DNA from: an uncultured Pseudomonadales bacterium
GTDB lineage: Bacteria; Pseudomonadota; Gammaproteobacteria; Pseudomonadales; Azotimanducaceae
Reading direction: 5' to 3'
DNA length: 64,000 bases
Assembly (NCBI GenBank): GCA_943787425.1
Contig: CALSMJ010000005.1
Span: 1-64,000 of the forward strand
The notes beneath the pieces were generated by a model. The model worked only from the letters and a program-made list of their open reading frames with translations. It made no database searches and was not told the origin of the DNA. Position numbers and translations under genes: made by a program. Positions 21,928-37,705 of this stretch are shown one piece after another (position 1 is the first letter of the stretch; every line of letters begins with the position of its first letter).

Positions 21928-22028
21928 CCACCTTAGCCGCATCCCGGCACATAAAATCGAAGTTACCGTTGCTCCCTTCCGGGCCTGGCGGAGTTCACCT
22001 CTATTTATTGCGAGAGGACCAAGGTGGC
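21928..22028 (-). ncRNA. ffs: Signal recognition particle RNA, 4.5S type
   Basis: About 100 nt on the minus strand. The universally conserved SRP core, GCCAGGCCCGGAAGGGAGCA, lies in the apical hairpin and is flanked by partly complementary arms. The ends pair: CCACCTT at the 5' end (complement of 22021-22027) with AAGGTGG at the 3' end (complement of 21928-21934). A run of seven T follows (complement of 21919-21925), acting as terminator. It is the scaffold for Ffh in co-translational membrane targeting. Confidence 0.93.
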
Positions 22029-27020: not shown

Positions 27021-27173
27021 CATAAAGCCCTTCTTGATGGTGTTTTGAATCAATGGCGTTGTAACGCGACCGGCGCGGCATCGATTTAGCGCAAAAACCG
27101 GACCAGACAGGACAACGACCCTCGAAGTACGCTACCCTTTGCGACAAATTAAACCTGCGTTGTGTGTCACTTT

Positions 27174-29211
27174 ATGAATTACCGATCCAGCCTTTTGCCG
27201 CCGCTTATTATGTTAGCAAGTTTATCTGCCACGGAGGTTGTCGCCAACCAGAGTCTGGCCTTGGAAGAAGTTGTTGTCACCGCTAATCGGGCTCAGGAGC
27301 CTTGGCTGGCCACGACCCGAACGGCAACGGTTGTCAATACTGAAACCATTGCGCAAACCCAAGCCGTGCACATTAACGAATTACTCGCCCGAGTTGCCGG
27401 CACCTGGATCAGCCGAGGCAACGGCCAAGAGCACTTAACGGCGGTGCGATCTCCCGTTCTGACTGGCGCAGGGGGTTGCGGCGCATTTTTAATGACCCAA
27501 GACAATGTACCGCTGCGCGCTTCGGGCTTTTGCAACGTGAATGAACTATTTGAGTCGGTCAGCGAACTGGCAGAGGCCGTTGAAGTGTTAAAAGGACCCG
27601 GTAGCGCAACCCACGGCTCCAATGCGCTGCATGGCTTGCTACAGATTCGAACGCCCAATCCTGGTGCCCAGCGCACGACAACCCAACTTGAAGCCGGACC
27701 CCATGGCTATACTCGACTGAAGCATTTATCCGTTCAGGCGCAGCTGGTGGTTGGCGTATCTGCGACGTCTGACGACGGCTACAAAACCGATTCGGGGTAC
27801 GGCCAACAAAAACTCCTACTGAAGCATCAACAGAACTTCGGCGCCTTTGAGGTCATCAACAGCCTCGCCGTCACCAACTTAAATCAAGAAACCTCAGGCT
27901 TTGTGCAAGGTATCGGCGCCTACCGGGATCCCGACTTCAAAAAACTCAATCCCAACCCAGAAGCCTTTCGAGACGTGCGCTCGGCGCGATTGATATCCGA
28001 TTGGCAGTCTGAATCGGGCAAATTAAGGATCACGCCCTTTCTGCGCTGGACCGACATGCGTTTTTTGCAGCATTTCCTACCCGGCCAACCCCTTGAGGAG
28101 AATGGTCATAGCAGCCTGGGATTGCAATCCAGCGCGGCGCTTACGAGCAACCTCACCGTAGGTTTCGACACGGAGCAAACCCGCGCCTTTTTAAAACAGA
28201 CCCAAACGGGCGAGACGCAAGGCAGTGCCTTTTTGGTCGGCACGATTCCCAGCGGCAAGCATTACGACTATGACGTAACGGCGACAATCGCCGCAGCGTT
28301 CGCCCAATATGACTGGCCGGTTTCTGAGGACCTGCTCGTCACCCTCGGGCTCAGAGCCGAACGCGTTGAATACGATTATGACAATCGCATGATCAGCGGT
28401 CGCACGAAAGACGATGGCACGACCTGCGGGTTTGGCGGTTGTCGCTACAATCGACCAGAAAGTCGATCGGATGCGTTCAACAATTTATCTCCGAAGCTGG
28501 GATTTAATTACGCTTTTGGTCAGCACAGGTTGTTTGGTCAGCTCTCTAAGGGCTTCAGAGCCCCTCAAGCAACCGAGTTATACCGGCTTCAGAATGGTCA
28601 AAACGTCGCTGATATCGACTCAGAAGCCCTCGACAGCTTGGAAGTTGGTCTTCGCGGGGCTACTGCTCGGCTTTCTTACCAATTGACCGGCTTTAGCATG
28701 AAAAAAGAAGGGTTCATCTTTCAAGACACCACCCGGGCCAATGTCGACAATGGTGAGACGCGACATCAAGGTGTTGAAATCGAGGGCCGCTTTGCACTGC
28801 GAGGATAACCTTGAGGTGTCAGCGAACTGGACGCTGGCTCGCCACCGCTACGACAACAACCCAGCGCTCTCGCGGGGGGTGATTCAAGGCAATGATATCG
28901 ATACCGCCCCAAGATCGATGGGCGGCCTGCAAGTGAATTGGGCGCCGACCGAGCGCGTGACCAGTGAACTCGAGTGGGTTCATATCGGACCCTACTTTAC
29001 CAACCCAGACAATACGAATCGTTATGACGGACATGATTTAATAAATCTGAGAGCCAATCTTGCACTCTCCAATGTCTGGCAGGGTTTTTTGCGCGTGACG
29101 AACCTGCTCGACACCGATTATGCTGAACGGGCAGATTATGCCTTTGGCAACGAACGATTTTTTGTCGGTGAACCCCGTGGGGTTTATATTGGATTTCGCC
29201 GCAGCAACTAA
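27174..29211 (+). CDS. TonB-dependent receptor (one frameshift)
   Basis: An outer-membrane receptor of about 678 residues. A signal peptide ending near VVANQ is followed by a TonB box [10 protein letters not shown], the plug with [20 protein letters not shown], and a barrel with [34 protein letters not shown] and a C-terminal [16 protein letters not shown]. Size and plug resemble siderophore or cobalamin receptors rather than the large carbon-substrate type. The frame shifts near 28800 by one extra base: EIEGRFAL upstream continues as [20 protein letters not shown]. Two Cys (GGCGAF, SGFCNV) in the plug are notable. The ligand is unknown. Confidence 0.88.
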
Positions 29212-29246: not shown

Positions 29247-30358
<1,112 letters not shown>

Positions 30359-30402
30359 TTGGAAAGATCCGCCATTACTGATGAAATTTGACCGTTTGCG
30401 AC

Positions 30403-30431
30403 TTGACGATTCAGCCTAAGATCAATATCAT
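30403..30431 (+). promoter_or_regulatory. tRNA operon promoter
   Basis: TTGACG (30403-30408) and TATCAT (30426-30431) have an exact 17-bp spacing and precede tRNA-Glu by about 20 bp. The bases after the -10 are GC-rich (TCGCGCCG), the discriminator type of stringently controlled stable-RNA promoters. Confidence 0.7.
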
Positions 30432-30452
30432 TCGCGCCGTCGGTTGTGTTCT

Positions 30453-30528
30453 GTCCCCTTCGTCTAGAGGCCTAGGACTCCAGGTTTTCATCCTGGCAAC
30501 AGGGGTTCGACTCCCCTAGGGGACGCCA
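30453..30528 (+). tRNA. tRNA-Glu (TTC)
   Basis: A 76-nt cloverleaf with CCA encoded. Acceptor GTCCCCT pairs with AGGGGAC, the anticodon stem CCAGG/CCTGG encloses TTTTCAT (anticodon TTC), and the T arm is AGGGGTTCGACTCCCCT. Very similar to E. coli tRNA-Glu. First gene of a two-tRNA transcript. Confidence 0.97.
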
Positions 30529-30602
30529 TCCGATCTGGTTGCCAACAAACCAGATATTGGTGTAAAAATGGTTCAAGGCAACGCGCCTTTAGCCTCAGCA
30601 AA

Positions 30603-30678
30603 GCGGGAATAGCTCAGTTGGTAGAGCGGTACCTTGCCAAGGTACAGGTCGCCAGTTCGAACCTGGTTTCCCGCTCCA
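30603..30678 (+). tRNA. tRNA-Gly (GCC)
   Basis: A 76-nt cloverleaf, CCA encoded. Acceptor GCGGGAA pairs with TTCCCGC, the anticodon loop has GCC (CCTTGCCAAGG), and the T arm is CCAGTTCGAACCTGG. Its last 16 nt (CTGGTTTCCCGCTCCA, 30663-30678) are the seed unit of the tandem array that follows. Confidence 0.97.
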
Positions 30679-31555
30679 AATACATGAAGCCCCTGCACCG
30701 TCAGGGGCTTTTTGTTCTTGGCACACCAGTTCTCAGCGAGCGTCGCACCGCTGGTTTCCCGCTCCAAACACAAAAAGCCCCTGCTCTGTCAGGGGTTTTT
30801 TGTTTATGGGACTTGGTCCTAGCATTATTAGCACAGTAGTTCTCAGCGAATGTCGCACCACTGGTTTCCCGCTCCAAACATAAGCCCCTGCTTTGTCAGG
30901 GTTTTTTGTTTATGGGACTTGGTCCTAGCATTATTAGCACAGCAGTTCTCAGCGAATGTCGCACCGCTGGTTTCCCGCTCCAAATACACTAAGCCCCTGC
31001 TCTGTCAGGGGTTTTTTGTTTATGGGACTTGGTCTAGCTTTTAGCACAGCAGTTCTCAGCGAATGTCGCACCACTGGTTTCCCGCTCCAAACACATAAAG
31101 CCCCTGCTTTGTCAGGGTTTTTTGTTTATGGGACTTGGTCATAGCATTATGAGCACAGCAGTTCTCAGCGAGCGTCGCACCGCTGGTTTCCCGCTCCAAA
31201 TACACAAAGCCCCTGCTCTGTCAGGGGTTTTTTGTTTATGGGACTTGGTCATAGCTTATTGCACAGCAGTTCTCAGCGAATGTCGCACCACTGGTTTCCC
31301 GCTCCAAATACATAAAGCCCCTGCTCTGTCAGGGGTTTTTTGTTTTTGCTACAGCAGTTCTCAGCGAGCGTCGCACCGCTGGTTTCCCGCTCCAAATACA
31401 TAAAGCCCCTGCTCTGTCAGGGATTTTTATTCTTGGCACAACCGGTCTCAGCGAGCGTCGCACGGCTGATATCCCGATCCGAGCACATTGAGACCATATA
31501 TGGTGGTGGTTTTTGTGTATGGTATCGCAGTCCTGAGCGTCTGATGCACCATGAG
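30663..31555 (+). repeat. Tandem array of tRNA-Gly 3' ends, each followed by a terminator hairpin
   Basis: The 16-nt tRNA-Gly end CTGGTTTCCCGCTCCA starts at 30663 (the tRNA itself) and recurs at 30751, 30861, 30967, 31074, 31183, 31291 and 31379 without a change in the first 15 bases, and in degenerate form at 31466. Spacings are 88, 110, 106, 107, 109, 108, 88 and 87 bp. Each unit then has the hairpin GCCCCTG...CAGGGG with a T-run, a phrase like GGGACTTGGTC, and TTCTCAGCGA(AT/GC)GTCGCACC leading to the next tRNA end. The layout is like the E. coli tyrT distal repeats (rtT RNA), which also start with the tRNA 3' end. Open frames across it change frame between units and are not genes. The degenerate ninth unit has a palindrome ACCATATATGGT before its T-run. 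Confidence 0.92.
30688..30714 (+). terminator. First Rho-independent terminator after tRNA-Gly
   Basis: AGCCCCTG (30688-30695) pairs with CAGGGGCT (30702-30709), loop of six, then a T-run. It lies 9 bp past the tRNA CCA and is repeated, with small changes, in each unit of the array. Confidence 0.88.
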
Positions 31556-31887
31556 TTCGGGCAGTGTAAACGGCAGGTGACCGCATGACGTCGATCGCGT
31601 TTCAAGATTATCTAATCGCGATTTGACCCCGGGCCCCTTAATGGCAGCGCCCTCTTTGACAATGTATTTATTGACCAAACGCTGCCTGAGACGCTAAGGC
31701 CGAAATCAATCCCAGAATGCGAAAACCCGCTAACGTACCTTAGTGATGCCCATCGTAAATCTAGCTTTTGGGTACGCCTTGCTGATGAAGTCACCAGAGT
31801 AATCAGCGTTCATCGCCCCCTTCTAATCTAAGCCCTTAAGTACTGGCAAGACAGCCAGAACCTCTAGACAGGGTGCCAACCGACGCT
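31556..31887. other. Region between tRNA array and outer-membrane protein gene
   Basis: No gene is assigned. A minus-strand open frame (31448-31678) starts MVNKYIVKEGAAIKGPGV and runs into the array; it has a weak coding look but no recognisable family. Could be a decayed gene next to the tRNA locus. Confidence 0.35.
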
Positions 31888-32979
31888 TCAAAAGGTGTAT
31901 AGCAGACCCGCGGACACCTGCGCGTAGGGATGTTCAAAAAACTTAGCCGTGCGCTGGTTATAGATCATCGGATCAAGCCCCAGAAGATAGTGCTGCGACA
32001 ACTCCGCCCGTCCAAACAGCGCCAGCGTTCCCAAGGGGTTGTACCAAATCGAAGCATTGAGCAGCGCGTTGGATTCATAATTGGGCACACCATCCAATTC
32101 CTCATAATCGGTTCGAGAAACCTTCAAAAATCCGATCTCACCCGTCAGCAACCATCGCGATCCTACTGGCACATTTAACCCAATATCATAACGAAGTGTT
32201 CTTTCTGACCAAGGCGCTTCTTGCGGAAACGTGCGCTTAAGCCGCGCGATGGTGTCGCCAAGAGGTTCGCCATTGAACCGAATGCCGAGCAGGAAGGGAT
32301 CATCCAACTCCAAAAAGGCAGATTGGGTCTCGGTATCGATCTCAGAATGCGAAAACCGCAACCGGTGCCAGAGGCTGATGCCATTCCCATATTGCTTTTT
32401 CAGCAGCAGACCTATGTGCCAACGATCTTCTTCAGCGGCGGTAACCACCGCAGGCTCAGCTTGACCCGTTTCTTGATCAGTGAAGGTAAGGTCTGCGCCA
32501 TCACAGGAGCCAACCGTGAGCCCTGAATAGGCATAGCATTCAACCCGAAGGTTATCTTGCGCCCGAGTGGCTAACCCTGCGAGCACTTGTAGACCATAAC
32601 CGGCGCGTTCAGGCAACTGCCATTGCACGAGCAATGCATCCCCTTGAACTGAAGATTCGACCTCAAACGGCTCTCGATCGCGCGAGGTGGCTGCGCTTGT
32701 AGCTTCACGCTGGTAGGACATCATCAGATTGTCCGTCGGCTTATAACCAACTGAGCCATAGACTGACGCCGCATCCTTAGGCTTAAACGTGCTGTTTAAT
32801 TTGCTCGCAAAATCAAAGACGTCGAGTGACTCGGAGAAATAAGCATAATCGAGCGCAACGTAGCCACGCTCAACCTCGCTCAGATCGAGCGTGGTGACCA
32901 AGGCAGACTGCTCCGCCCAACCAGGCTGACTCATAACAGTGCACAACAATACAGAAAACACCACTAGGAAACGACTCAT
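31888..32979 (-). CDS. Predicted outer-membrane beta-barrel protein of unknown function
   Basis: A 363-residue exported protein. The signal peptide MSRFLVVFSVLLCTVMSQPGWAEQ is clear. The rest alternates polar and hydrophobic residues in strands (GYVALDYAYFS, YGLQVLAGLATRAQD, WHIGLLLKKQYGNGISLWHRL, LLTGEIGFLKVS) and ends in AQVSAGLLYTF with a C-terminal Phe, the outer-membrane barrel signal. Two Cys (VECYAYSG, VGSCDG) may pair in a loop. No family is recognised. It is downstream of the large calcium-binding lipoprotein gene on the same strand, separated by a terminator. Confidence 0.75.
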   Translation of the reverse strand: MSRFLVVFSVLLCTVMSQPGWAEQSALVTTLDLSEVERGYVALDYAYFSESLDVFDFASKLNSTFKPKDAASVYGSVGYKPTDNLMMSYQREATSAATSRDREPFEVESSVQGDALLVQWQLPERAGYGLQVLAGLATRAQDNLRVECYAYSGLTVGSCDGADLTFTDQETGQAEPAVVTAAEEDRWHIGLLLKKQYGNGISLWHRLRFSHSEIDTETQSAFLELDDPFLLGIRFNGEPLGDTIARLKRTFPQEAPWSERTLRYDIGLNVPVGSRWLLTGEIGFLKVSRTDYEELDGVPNYESNALLNASIWYNPLGTLALFGRAELSQHYLLGLDPMIYNQRTAKFFEHPYAQVSAGLLYTF

Positions 32980-33078: not shown

Positions 33079-36000
33079 TTACTCGATGATGATTGTCCCT
33101 TCAACCCTATTGATGGGCACGCCACCATAGGTCAGGATATTGTCCACTGTCGCTGGCGCTTTGTCTCCCAACTCAGTGCCTGCTGCCAACACTTCGATCA
33201 CCAAATCAAACTTGCCCGCCTGCAACTCTACTGTTACCTCGCTATTCCTGCCTGCTAGGTTCAAGTCAAACAAACTGACCAGCTTCGCAGACAGCGTTGG
33301 CGGATAGATCCCTGGCAAGGAGATATCCAAGGTCTCTGCCGTCGACTCCAAAGTGAAGGTACAACCAGTTTGACAAACATTACTATCTGTCACAGTCACG
33401 TCCTGCGTCTGTGAAGGCACCGTAAAGTTACTGCCGTTATAACTTACATCAACCAAAGAGGCCATCGTCAGGTCACCGCCCGACACAGTCATTTTAAGTG
33501 CGAAAGCATCATTTAGTGTTGGCACATTCGCCATTTTAAACTGCAGTGCTGGTACCAGCGCATCAGAATTGCCGCTCAACAGGTCGTTGACGTGTGCCTT
33601 CTTTATGGCTTTGCTTGGACCAAAGTCGAATTCCAGCGTCTTGCCGTTGACCGCAGGGTGTAACCGGATCTTGTCAAGCGTCGGATAACTAACATGCAAC
33701 TCTACCGGGCTTGAGCTCATGGTCGACCAATCATCCACCATAACGTCGTACTTATCCATTGTGGTAGCCTGCTTCACCAACCGTAAGCGAGGCTTGAAGG
33801 CTGGTTAGCAACGCTGCGTTCTCTGCCCGACGGTAGTACAGCACTTCATCAGTGCCCTGATCGATCGTCACCATTACCGTGTAGTCACCAGCCTCGAAGA
33901 AACCCGCCAGATCAATCCCAGCAAACTCTGCACCCGTTTTAGTGGCCGCTGTGAACCAGTCAAGGATTCTAACCTCTAGCGTCGCCGGGAAGTTCTCAAA
34001 CGCCTTACTCTGGCTCAAAGTGATCATGTCCGAAGCACCGTTCGCACCAGTGACTGTCGCGATCGTACTACCTTTGGTGTAAGTCATCGACAAGCTCTGA
34101 GCAGGCACCGTGACGGCGACATCTCCACTTGCATCTGCACTCCAATTGGCGGTGATGCTACCGGTCAGCATGCGTTCTGAAGTCGACTGAACCGCATCAG
34201 CACCTTCAAGAAGGCTAATTGTAAGCTCCATGGCACCACTTTCACCCGATGCAGGCACACTGTTCATGGCCAGGAGTAATCTCGGCGCCATCCCGGTGCT
34301 ACCATTGCTATCGACTAAGTTCTTCAAATTAGAAAGGTCAACAACGTTGCCTGTGCCCATGGCAACCGACAACTTACCAGCCGTGCTCACCGTGGGTGAC
34401 AGACCGTAAACCACCGCCTTGTTGCTCATACCATCGACATAATCCAACAACCCAACTCGATGAAGGTTGAACCGACCAGGCACTTCACCCAAGGTCATGT
34501 TCGCTGTAATACCCGTGACGAGTACTTCTCCGCTCTTATAGAAAATGTTCCCTTTCTTGGCATCCTGAGTCAGGGTAACGCCAACATAATAGTCATCTGC
34601 CCCGTCGAAGAAGTTACCAAGGTTCAGGCCATTAAAGTCGGCAGCATCTTCATTGGCGGCCACAGCATTTGCGAACAACCCTAGCGCTCGGATTTCTAAC
34701 GACGCGGGCAGGTTCGAATAATTATCGCTCTTGTTCACGGTGAACATATCGGCTGCAAGGTTGGTGCTCTCTAATTCGTAACTAGTACTATCATGCTCGT
34801 ACGTCAGAGTTGCCTTTCTGCTAGCAGGAACAGATACCGTAATGTCAGTGCCATCAGACTTCCAGTCCATAGAAACCGAAGCAGTCAACTTGCGTTCACC
34901 GGCGTCGTGCGTTGCGTCGCCATCATCGTTTTCCATCAACATCAATTTCACCATGATTGTGCCTGATGTTCCTGCAACCGGTACTTGATCCATTGCAAGG
35001 ACCAAGCTCGGCGCCATTTCTGATCCAGTATCGCCGTCGACCAAATTCTTTAGATTCGATCGATCGATCACCACGCCATCTGCTAGAGCCAAAGATAGCA
35101 CTCCATCGCTGCCCATAGTTGCCGTTGTAGGATAAGTTGCCTTGCTTCTATCCTGATCCACATAATCAGAAATGCTAACGCTATTCAGCTTGAAGGCCGA
35201 AACCGAAAAGCTCGCATTGTCTGGGAATTCATCATCCCCATTGTCGACGCCGTCGCCATCTCGGTCTGCATCACAAACATTACCCAGGCCATCCTCATCC
35301 AAGTCTGCTTGGTCCTTGTTAGCAACTGCTGGGCAGTTATCCGCATTGTCGCCAATTAAATCCTTATCGGTATCTTTGCTTTCCGTTGCATCATCCGGAA
35401 ATTCATCATCTTCATTTAAGACCTTGTCACCATCTCGGTCTGCGTCACAAACATCACCAAACGTGTCTTTATCAAGGTTTGCCTGATCGGTGTTTGCTAT
35501 TGAGGGGCAGTTATCGACGTCATTCAGAACCGTGTCACCATCTTTATCGGTGTCACAAACGTCGCCTAGTGCGTCCTTGTCCAAGTTAGCCTGGTCTTTG
35601 TTCGCAATGAGCGGACAATTGTCAACGCCGTTGGCAATGGAGTCTCCATCCCTATCAGCATCGCAAACATCACCGGCGCCGTCTTTATCCGTATCAAGTT
35701 GATCCGCGTTGACGGTCACCGGACAGTTGTCAACCTTATCATTGGCCTTGTCGCCATCGGTATCGGCCAGCAAGGGGTCCGTGCCTTGCTTTATTTCATC
35801 GAGATCCGACACACCATCGTTGTCATCATCATCATCACAAACGTTACCCTGACCATCCTTATCCGTATCAAGCTGATCAGCGTTCGCATTGATCGGACAG
35901 TTGTCGACCTTATCGTTGGCCTTGTCACCATCCGTATCGGGGTTGAGTGGATCGGTACCCTGCTTTATTTCATCGAGATCCGATACACCGTCGTTATCAT

Positions 36001-37705
36001 CATCGAGATCCTTGTTATTCCCAATGCCGTCGCCATCGGTATCCACTGATTCTGTCGGGTCTCGTGGGAACGCATCTTCATTATCAGGTACACCATCACC
36101 ATCATCGTCCGTATCAATGACGTCCGGGATACCATCCTTATCTAAATCAGGCAGTGCCTCGGTGGTATTGGCTACAACCTCGGCCAAAATCACATCCACC
36201 GTAATCTCTTCAATCTTAACAATCTCAGCTACGACAACCGCTGCAATGTCGGCAGCAGAGCCGCCGGCATCAATTACTTCTTTGATCGCTGCAACCGTTT
36301 CAACCACCTGAGCGATGACAGTGTTTTCTGTCGCAATAACAATCGCCACACCCAGCTCACTCGTCGGGTTCACGCTTTCATCTGCAACCGCCGTGTTGAC
36401 GATCTCTACTTTTGAGGCGATCGCCGTAATTACAGCCTGGACCTGCGCGACTTTCGCCGCAGCTGCAACTGCAGCGTCTGCTTCTGAGCTACCTGCCGCA
36501 ATTGCCTCAGCCTTTGCTACTTCAAGGACTGTCTCTTCGATGACACTTTCGATGACATCGGCACTAGCGAGATTCACTTCGACTGGCAAGCCCGTTGCCA
36601 CCGACTCTGCAACCGCAACCACCGCTTTCTTAACAATCGCTTGCGAAACCGCCTCAACCGCCGATGCCAAAGCTGCAGCCGATTGCGCCGCAGTTTGCTC
36701 CCCCGTCGTTGTCGTTTTCGCGATACTCGCGGCGACTTTAATGATTGTTGCGACCTGCGTATTCACCCGTTGTATTGCTTGCGCAACGGCAGACGCGGCG
36801 ACCGCTTCCTCCGATGTTCCCGTATCTTGCGAACCGGCCCACGGGTCTATCGTCAAAGCCTCTTGAACACTAACGCCTCCTAACCCCAGCGCGACCAGCA
36901 CCGCTTCTTTTTCTTCTGCGGACTCAGCTGCGGCAATAATTGTCGTCAGAGGGGTCACGGCAACGGGTGGGAAAACTTGCTTAGCAGAACCGTCTGCATT
37001 TAAGACAGGCTTGCCTTCCTCGTCTAAAGCCGCAACCTGTGTTGGTAAATCAGCTGACAACTGAATGTTTTCAAGGACCTTGCCGGTGGCAATGTCGGTG
37101 CCCCCGATCGAGTAAAACTTTCCTGCGCAACCTTCGGTCAGTTCCAACTCTGTTTCCAGTTTGAAAAAGCCACTCTCATCGGAGGTTCCGGAAGGCTCTA
37201 TATAGGGCGCTGTTTTGTCCTGCGCCTTGTTACAATTCATGTCCACGTATACCGCGGCGCCCGAGACAGGACCATCGACCACTCGGCCATCAATTGCTGC
37301 GCCCTCTGCCACATTCGTAACCTTAACGGTCAACGTCACCGCGGCGCTTAGCGTGCCATTGGCCTCAACTCTTACCGAGTAGCTATTGCCGTCATCGAGA
37401 CTTCCCGCTGGCGATTCAAAATCCGGGGCTTCTTGGAAAGATAGCAGACCGTCTGCCGCTAACTCAAAGAGAGCGCCATCATCACCGCTTACCGCTAGCG
37501 TCCCGCCAGAGCTCGTAACCACTGCCACCTCGGTCGTATTCTCCTCAATACTGACCACCACGGGCTGCGTGCCCACCGTCACACCGTCAACGGACAGAAC
37601 CGGCGCAAAGCCGGCCGGGCCACCATCTTCGCCCCCGCCGCCACTACCACCGCCGCAGGACGCTATCAGCAGCGTGCTCAATACTAGGAAAACATTACGA
37701 ACCAT
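33079..37705 (-). CDS. Large calcium-binding lipoprotein with thrombospondin type 3 repeats (one frameshift)
   Basis: A surface lipoprotein of about 1541 residues. In order: lipobox LLIASC with a Gly-rich linker; a cadherin-like stretch (VVSIEENTTEVAVVTSSGG); a short beta module with GAAVYVDMNCNKAQD; about 250 residues of Ala/Val/Ile-rich helix (280-515); nine or more Asp-rich thrombospondin type 3 repeats (515-828, DTDGDKANDKVDNCP, VCDADRDGD), which bind calcium; then three copies of a ~230-residue domain (about 830-1070, 1071-1310 and 1311-end). The frame shifts near 33768 by one extra base (VGEAGYH then MDKYDVMVDDW). A GGAGA site precedes ATG 37705. The same C-terminal domain recurs in the gene at 41541-43473. 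Function is inferred only: an adhesive or envelope-attached surface protein. Confidence 0.8.

What the first reader, a model, noticed from the sequence alone, without database searches (positions are those of the whole stretch)
30663..31555. Tandem array of tRNA-Gly 3' ends with a terminator in every unit
Seen: the last 16 nt of tRNA-Gly recur seven more times, unchanged in at least the first 15 bases, plus one degenerate copy, at 88-110 bp spacing, and each is followed by a GC-rich hairpin with a T-run and by a conserved TTCTCAGCGA...GTCGCACC phrase. Known: the E. coli tyrT locus has three similar repeats that start with tRNA-Tyr 3' sequence and make rtT RNA. Inference: this is an independent and larger tRNA-tail array. 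It may produce a ladder of small RNAs, buffer read-through from a strong tRNA promoter, mimic a tRNA 3' end for processing enzymes, or offer many attachment-like sites for integrases.
Basis: partly seen in the sequence, partly recalled or inferred. Interest (0 to 1): 0.85.

Follow-up and report, generated by a model that had tools for sequence, protein, structure and literature searches.

The report
Tandem tRNA-tail repeats behind tRNA-Gly
Behind a glycine tRNA gene this bacterium carries a row of short repeats, each ending in a copy of the tRNA's tail and followed by a transcription stop signal; it looks like an unusually long example of the tRNA-linked repeats known from E. coli, and similar repeats turn up in several other families of the same bacterial order.

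Summary
After tRNA-Gly(GCC) (30603-30678) the last 16 nt of the tRNA recur 7 times exactly, plus one clearly decayed copy and one doubtful one, at 87-110 bp spacing; an intrinsic-terminator-like hairpin follows all 8 exact tails. By anatomy it is like the tRNA-linked repeats (TLRs) of E. coli, to which tyrT/rtT belongs, but with more units than the 1-5 per locus reported there and a terminator in every unit. It is not RtT. A same-genus MAG (G013) has a related array exactly at the CCA boundary; of 10 readable genus loci two show arrays, two are unresolved, six have none. Other tRNA-Gly-tail units, with a hairpin inserted in the T-loop, occur in at least 28 of 381 genomes of the order and in none of 293 class genomes; G507 has a 4-unit array with terminators. 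The window units do not match the model of those units, so that kinship is architectural. Most likely: readthrough from the tRNA promoter makes decreasing amounts of CCA-tailed RNAs, with the tail as processing signal; copy number changed by unequal recombination. Expression and function are untested. No tyrosine integrase was found on the contigs concerned.

The parts
30403..30431 (+). candidate promoter of the tRNA-Glu/tRNA-Gly operon (TTGACG, 17 nt, TATCAT)
   Evidence: the only sigma-70-like site in 30300-31900; consensus match only, 1.1 expected in shuffles
30453..30528 (+). tRNA-Glu(TTC)
30603..30678 (+). tRNA-Gly(GCC), CCA encoded; parent of the tails
30679..30766 (+). unit 1 (short type, 88 bp): terminator 30686-30711, hairpin 30736-30746 (GCGA GCG TCGC), tail 30751-30766
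30767..30876 (+). unit 2 (long type, 110 bp), tail 30861-30876
30877..30982 (+). unit 3 (long type, 106 bp), tail 30967-30982
30983..31089 (+). unit 4 (long type, 107 bp), tail 31074-31089
31090..31198 (+). unit 5 (long type, 109 bp), tail 31183-31198; the dimer of units 5-6 is closest to that of units 3-4
31199..31306 (+). unit 6 (long type, 108 bp), tail 31291-31306
31307..31394 (+). unit 7 (short type, 88 bp), tail 31379-31394
31395..31481 (+). unit 8: terminator-like hairpin 31407-31422 present, tail decayed (31466-31481)
   Evidence: 57.8 bits, E 1.3e-13
31483..31575 (+). possible ninth, strongly decayed unit (68-79% to the other window units in pairwise alignment); doubtful
   Evidence: not found by model R1

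Best explanation
This is a TLR-like locus of the tRNA-Glu/tRNA-Gly operon, amplified to 7 intact units plus 1-2 decaying ones. SHOWN: each intact unit runs from just after one CCA to the next CCA and consists of a terminator-like hairpin, a spacer, a small hairpin (GCGA-NNG-TCGC) and the last 16 nt of the parent tRNA. INFERRED: transcripts from the tRNA promoter mostly stop at the first terminator; readthrough yields steeply decreasing amounts of unit RNAs; the tail with CCA and the A-rich sequence after it is cut like a tRNA 3' end (RNase E type), releasing RNAs of roughly 90-110 nt whose level follows tRNA transcription. Copy number grew by unequal recombination between units. At usual terminator efficiencies the distal units would hardly be expressed, so extra copies are likely near-neutral or fail-safe terminators.
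For: Anatomy. Published TLR description (tail identical to the 3' end of the upstream tRNA/rRNA) and RrB between T1 and T2, made by readthrough and processed, with RNase E suggested to recognise the tail: PMC8144298. Among fetched loci with tRNA-Gly-tail units (47 of 48 rows usable, the window included), units with another tRNA within 300 nt downstream lack a terminator in 19 of 20; the others have one in 15 of 27; Fisher p 0.0004, loci not phylogenetically independent. That fits units that are transcribed. Recombination: units 1 and 7 are both short and differ in 8 columns, the long units lie between them, and u3u4/u5u6 is the closest pair of dimers (11 differences, other pairs 14-57); TRF scores a 216-bp period above a 106-bp one (1089 against 1040). 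Conservation: intact units of G000 and G013 are 83-91% identical over ungapped columns, while fourfold sites of the neighbouring dehydrogenase are 43/138 identical.
Against: No RNA data. Terminators are predictions, and T-run lengths may carry indel errors (neighbouring ORFs are frameshifted). Whole-unit folding is unremarkable for 5 of 8 units (z -0.40 to -1.04; the other three below -2.5). The hairpin GCGA/TCGC is invariant in window and G013 units, so it gives no covariation. The tail is 16 nt, shorter than the 18-19 of E. coli. In the G013 units seen the tail differs from its own tRNA at 2 of 16 positions, so exact identity is not required. Model R2 of the order-wide units finds nothing in G000. 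High unit conservation could also come from transfer between lineages. The T-arm 5' half upstream of the hairpin is not significant in window or G013 units (p 0.21-0.93).
Confidence: 0.55

Rival explanations
1. Stack of terminators or neutral tandem repeat: the array only ensures that transcription of the tRNA operon stops, and copy number drifts by recombination.
For: A terminator-like hairpin after 8 of 8 exact tails. In G013 the flank beyond the array aligns to the sequence right after tRNA-Gly in G001, and by eye its terminator stem is less perfect than in G001, as if relieved of duty. Distal window units decay.
Against: Does not explain why phrase and tail are among the best-conserved parts between G000 and G013, nor why units without any terminator sit between tRNAs in other families.
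Confidence: 0.25
2. Attachment-site array: tRNA-Gly tails are att sites, and the units are remnants or minimal non-autonomous elements accreted by a tRNA-Gly-specific integrase, in the manner of the ssrA islands of Dehalococcoides (PMC3146451, passages).
For: In G013 the array sits exactly at the CCA boundary relative to G001 (flank alignment starts at the first base of both; score 113.5, null maximum 25.5 of 300). Patchy distribution in the genus. ICEclc-type elements use an 18-bp tRNA-Gly(GCC) tail ending TTTCCCGCTCCA (PMC7466150, passages). Ectopic tRNA-Gly 3' parts lie in G000, G010, G002 and G004.
Against: PF00589 matches: G000 on C4, C3, C1; G013 on C56, C162, C108; none on the contigs with the array. 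PF13356: none in G000, G013, G002, G010; present in G011 (C38) and G001 (C27), not on their tRNA-Glu/Gly contigs. Outside the array, G000 matches were tRNA genes and one tRNA-Gly 3' half with a similar terminator on C7. No viral contig with the unit phrase or two order-wide unit motifs. The dimer pattern fits recombination better. Serine integrases were not searched.
Confidence: 0.15
3. A trans-acting regulatory RNA (RrB-like binding of CsrA or Hfq, or a sponge) is the selected function.
For: RrA/B/F precedent (PMC8144298). In 36 order-wide units the inserted hairpin plus one extra pair has 96% of cells paired and 16 cells changed on both sides, against 89.4% and 4.4 in shuffles.
Against: Only 2 of the 5 pairs tested show changes on both sides, a number shuffles reach in 455 of 500. 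In the paper the 19 tRNA-operon TLRs of E. coli scored <0.01 for predicted CsrA affinity. Nothing of this was tested on window units.
Confidence: 0.1

Closest known systems
tRNA-linked repeats (TLRs) of E. coli K-12, including the rtT/tyrT repeats
   Same: Directly downstream of the parent tRNA, same strand; unit ends in a copy of the tRNA 3' end (13 directly adjacent units with 18-19 nt identity seen in the 11 E. coli regions examined); can be tandem; contains hairpins.
   Different: Parent is tRNA-Gly(GCC) in another order; 7-9 units against a reported 1-5 per locus; 16 nt identity; a terminator in every unit; no RF00391 match; units 88-110 bp against 175-178 bp for the tyr units (98-156 bp for the lys and arg units).
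RrA/RrB/RrF (5S-linked TLRs between T1 and T2)
   Same: Terminator - unit - terminator order; tail identical to the 3' end of the preceding RNA.
   Different: rRNA, single unit; shown in the paper to be made, processed and bound by Hfq/CsrA; nothing of this is shown here.
ssrA-island repeats of Dehalococcoides and ICEclc-type tRNA-Gly att sites
   Same: Direct repeats of an RNA gene 3' end downstream of the gene.
   Different: Those repeats bound kilobase islands, many with integrase genes; here spacing is about 100 bp, without genes.
4-unit array in G507 (L153), same order
   Same: tRNA-Gly-type tail, hairpin, and a terminator-like hairpin after each of four tails, tandem at 125-bp period.
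   Different: Different unit sequence; hairpin CTGG-NNCG-CCAG at another place in the T-loop; two of the four tails carry a mismatch; first unit tail lies 295 bp after the tRNA tail.

Membership tests
tRNA-linked repeats (TLR) | in a tRNA/rRNA operon, immediately downstream of the gene, same orientation | tested here: met
tRNA-linked repeats (TLR) | 18-19 bp at the 3' end identical to the 3' end of the upstream RNA gene | tested here: inconclusive
   exact identity over 16 nt, a little shorter than published; hence filed as TLR-like
tRNA-linked repeats (TLR) | transcribed with the operon and processed (shown for RrA/B/F only) | not testable with these tools
   no RNA data
RtT RNA (RF00391) | match to the covariance model | tested here: not met
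   no match at E<=10 in 30400-31700; E. coli control 4 matches above gathering
order-wide T-loop-hairpin units (model R2) | match to the model built from 20 units | tested here: not met
   no match at E<=1e-4 in G000
order-wide T-loop-hairpin units (model R2) | 5' half of the parental T-arm directly upstream of the hairpin | tested here: inconclusive
   CCAGTTC or CAGTTC in 6 of 7 window units, p 0.21-0.60; u2 0.93, G013 0.88; in other loci 17 of 36 units p<=0.01, uncorrected and not independent
attachment-site accretion | integrase gene at the locus | tested here: not met
   no PF00589 match on C5 or C7 of G000, nor on C121 or C17 of G013; serine integrases not searched
attachment-site accretion | boundary exactly at the RNA gene 3' end | tested here: met
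   G013 against G001 flank; exact loss in G001 would look the same

The most novel reading that the evidence does not exclude
The units are minimal, gene-free mobile DNAs of about 70-125 bp that insert exactly at the 3' end of tRNA-Gly, each rebuilding the tRNA tail, using borrowed integrases. They have spread to tRNA-Gly loci across several families of the order, and tandem arrays such as this one are their accretion products.
Probability: 0.12. Interest if true: 0.8.

Novelty: new variant of a known kind. Interest (0 to 1): 0.5.

Why it matters
TLRs were first described in 1978 and, RrA/B/F apart, have no known function (PMC8144298). This locus and the order-wide units show a similar architecture behind another tRNA in other families, with a hairpin that covaries in part in the order-wide units, so comparative and experimental tests become possible outside Enterobacterales. 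The link between terminators and operon position gives a handle on whether the units act as RNA. If the mobile reading holds, it would be a remarkably small mobile unit.

Tried and rejected
RtT by Rfam: rejected. Weak rimP-leader hits (best 26.4 bits, gathering 47): judged chance. Phage origin: no phage match, no viral contig with the unit phrase or two order-wide motifs. Three viral contigs with two 11-nt tails: one holds two full tRNA-Gly genes, two look unrelated. Plasmid-collection matches (167 records, 20 listed): those listed cover the tRNA part of the query. Downstream flank of the array in ten genus genomes: matched only G000 and, at a gene on another contig, G006, so arrays in G002 and G010 stay unproven. 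ORFs through the array: not followed, because unit lengths shift the frame. Related pairs G522/G472 and G453/G376 for an empty site: too diverged to decide. T-loop split in E. coli TLRs only partly borne out: of 13 directly adjacent units the four tyr ones gave p 0.006-0.052, two lys ones 0.09-0.12, the other seven >0.2 (48 genes examined; 30 rows because units behind intervening tRNAs are repeated; rrB not found by its criterion).

Counts to read with care. One search lists only the best matches, so 28 of 381 (45 nt or longer, at least 43 bits) is a lower bound; a 45-nt match at 39.7 bits in G561 was left out. Window-type, f40-type and f8-type units are not what R2 finds. In one search, 21 of 390 includes G000, and the place listed for G507 is two full tRNA-Gly genes. 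In one search the script may count tails of neighbouring tRNAs as units in a few loci (for example L118, L134). Its 48 rows come only from loci fetched; G013 was left out of the table because the contig ends. A1 holds 7 window and 2 G013 modules, and R1 scores these by construction. A2 took 20 of the 36 units printed (left out: f40 and f8 types, double-hairpin units, near-duplicates, one spurious). A3 dropped from A2 the three rows with other stem sequences (L046, L116, one L108), which MAFFT misaligned, and of the 20 new ones left out L135. Control results against: pairs with change on both sides 29/500 (A2) and 455/500 (A3), further pair types 500/500 in both; A4 93/500.

Full report
OBSERVATION. 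The window is bases 1-64000 of contig C5 of a 3.26-Mb, 8-contig genome, 93.7% complete. tRNA-Glu (30453-30528) and tRNA-Gly(GCC) (30603-30678) form the locus, with one promoter-like site upstream (30403-30431). The 16-nt tail CTGGTTTCCCGCTCCA occurs at the tRNA end and 7 more times without mismatch, all + strand. The decayed eighth copy is confirmed by a model of the other units (57.8 bits); a ninth is doubtful. Terminator-like hairpins follow 8 of 8 exact tails (scan). The phrase TCTCAGCGA-NN-GTCGCACC-N-CTG is intact in 7 of 7 units. The finding is real and not chance.

ANATOMY. Units are best cut from CCA to CCA: u1 and u7 are 88 bp, u2-u6 are 106-110 bp with an extra segment of about 22 nt. 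The order is terminator, spacer, hairpin GCGA-NNG-TCGC, tail. Whole-unit folding: 3 of 8 have z below -2.5, the other five lie between -0.40 and -1.04. u1 and u7 differ in 8 columns; the long ones form their own group. The dimer u3u4 is closest to u5u6 (11 differences, other dimer pairs 14-57), and TRF scores a 216-bp period above 106. This points to growth by unequal recombination inside the array, leaving older short units at the ends.

RELATIVES IN THE GENUS. Of 15 genus genomes including the window's, the tRNA-Glu/tRNA-Gly locus could be read in 10. An array is seen in 2 (G000, G013; in G013 both contigs break inside it and two differing units are visible). In 2 more (G002, G010) the contig ends in the first terminator or 6 nt after the tRNA, which suggests an unresolved repeat but proves nothing, and a search with the window's downstream flank found no partner contig. 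In 6 (G001, G004, G006, G007, G009, G011) there is no array. In G013 the sequence beyond the last tail aligns from its first base to the sequence directly after tRNA-Gly in G001 (210 identical of 306 columns; score 113.5, null maximum 25.5), and genes further downstream keep their order. So the array is an exact insertion there, or an exact loss in G001, at the CCA boundary. The same test against G011 (24.5, null maximum 24.0) and G004 (16.0, null maximum 28.0) was weak or negative. Intact units of G000 and G013 are 83-91% identical, although fourfold sites of the neighbouring dehydrogenase are only 43/138 identical. That means constraint or transfer; the two were not separated.

WIDER. A first model (R1) finds array units only in G000 and G013 among 206 family genomes at E<=1e-5 (G002, G063 and G004 match at 36-51 bits through tRNA tail plus terminator) and only in G000 among 390 order genomes, a sample without G013, at E<=1e-6. 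Looking instead for two 12-nt tRNA-Gly tails with 62-92 bases between them found 21 of 390 order genomes, 16 of 142 genera. One of the 21 is G000, and in one (G507) the place is two full tRNA-Gly genes. G164 in the family has one such unit. Reading these loci showed a pattern: real tRNA-Gly followed by one or more partial tRNA-Gly 3' ends, most with a hairpin such as CTGG-NNCG-CCAG in the T-loop. In 17 of 36 units tested the parental T-arm or further 5' tRNA sequence is recognisable at p<=0.01, uncorrected; in the rest it is weaker or absent. A second model (R2, 20 units) separates real tRNA-Gly (32-nt matches, about 36-41 bits) from inserted units (45 nt or longer, at least 43 bits): at least 28 of 381 order genomes in six families carry the latter, and none of 293 class genomes does (at least four of these belong to the order). 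Tandem cases: G507 has four units at 125-bp period with a terminator-like hairpin after each tail; G434 three at 78 bp, at a contig end without visible tRNA; G556 (L143) three; G496 (L129) two with terminators. Halomonas sp. PA16-9 carries one. In 17 such loci Rfam at E<=0.01 matched tRNAs and two unrelated families, none covering the units.

STRUCTURE EVIDENCE in these wider units. On 36 units 96.0% of cells pair against 89.4% in shuffles; 16 cells changed on both sides against 4.4; covariation 0.234 against 0.117, 0/500. But only one hairpin pair (U-A/C-G) and one extra pair outside it vary on both sides, a number that shuffles reach in 455/500, and two hairpin pairs never vary. The 20-unit set gives 94.8% and 8 cells against 2.9. 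The f40 set (5 units) has one compensatory case, 93/500, not significant. None of this is evidence on the window hairpin, which does not vary, and R2 does not match G000. The link between the window and these units is architecture and position, not proven descent.

TRANSCRIPTION LOGIC. Where another tRNA follows within 300 nt, units carry no terminator in 19 of 20 loci; where none follows, 15 of 27, the window included, have one (Fisher p 0.0004). Loci of one family are not independent. This is what is expected if the units are read through as part of tRNA operons.

KNOWN CLASS. PMC8144298 (introduction read whole, part 1 of 2 of the discussion, other passages) describes E. coli tRNA-linked repeats: 22 at ten loci, one to five each, 18-19 bp of their 3' end identical to the upstream tRNA/rRNA 3' end. 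RrA/B/F lie between T1 and T2 behind 5S, are made by readthrough, processed, and bind Hfq and CsrA. The authors suggest that RNase E recognises the repeated tail. An early claim for the tyrT repeat was withdrawn. E. coli control: tyr tails at 175- and 178-bp spacing, four RtT matches, 13 directly adjacent units in the regions I fetched. The window array resembles the class, with a shorter tail (16 nt), more units and a terminator per unit. My searches listed no report of TLRs outside Enterobacterales. In one search the phrase 'tRNA-linked repeats' occurred in one of ten papers listed, the one above; the library lacks most subscription journals.

MECHANISM. Most likely: readthrough, then cutting after CCA. 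With 87% termination, the value quoted for rrnB T1 in PMC8144298, unit k would be made at about 0.13 to the power k (0.13, 0.017, 0.0022 ...), so distal units matter little unless termination is weak. Array length itself is then probably a by-product of recombination. The attachment-site idea has in its favour the exact boundary and the known use of the tRNA-Gly tail by ICEclc-type elements (PMC7466150, passages); against it stand the absence of a tyrosine integrase on the contigs concerned and of array-unit copies elsewhere in the genome.

VERDICT. The unexpected gain is the order-wide set of tRNA-Gly tails with an interrupted T-loop.

Noticed in passing
G000:C7:58873-58948 (-), L063; G010:C15:592-675, L056: 3' half of tRNA-Gly with a terminator resembling the array terminator and, by eye, a TATAAT box upstream, beside an enoyl-CoA hydratase gene that lies downstream of tRNA-Gly in G006 (L058); looks like the scar of a rearrangement at tRNA-Gly.
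   Followed up: partly
L051 (G002:C178) 1616, 1806 and about 9964; L052 (G004:C100) 4520 and 4329: Decayed tRNA-Gly (and tRNA-Glu) copies lie beside a giant ORF that sits at different loci in the two genomes.
   Followed up: partly
window 27153-29208 and 29251-30321: TonB receptor and dehydrogenase ORFs are broken by frameshifts while relatives (for example L064) have longer single ORFs; possibly indel errors of the assembly.
   Followed up: no
window 33752-37705 (-), repeat 35685-36004: Large ORF with an internal 174-bp repeat and Asp-rich repeats, similar over 147 aa (42%) to the giant ORF near tRNA-Gly fragments in G002.
   Followed up: no
L123, L102 (G423): Full-length tRNA-Gly-like copies with an altered T-loop and, in some, changed anticodon loops in a large tRNA-Glu/tRNA-Gly array.
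   Followed up: no
L060 and L061 downstream of tRNA-Gly: By eye, sequences after tRNA-Gly in G001 and G011 share GTTGGACAC-like repeats and an ATG start that resemble the beginning of a tRNA-adjacent integrase gene (recalled motif, not tested).
   Followed up: no
PMC2658671, table passage: Salmonella comparison lists a 175-bp VNTR in rtT RNA and a 220-bp VNTR at a tRNA-Gly, i.e. copy-number change at such loci.
   Followed up: no
window 21928-22024 (-): Bacterial small SRP RNA (RF00169).
   Followed up: no
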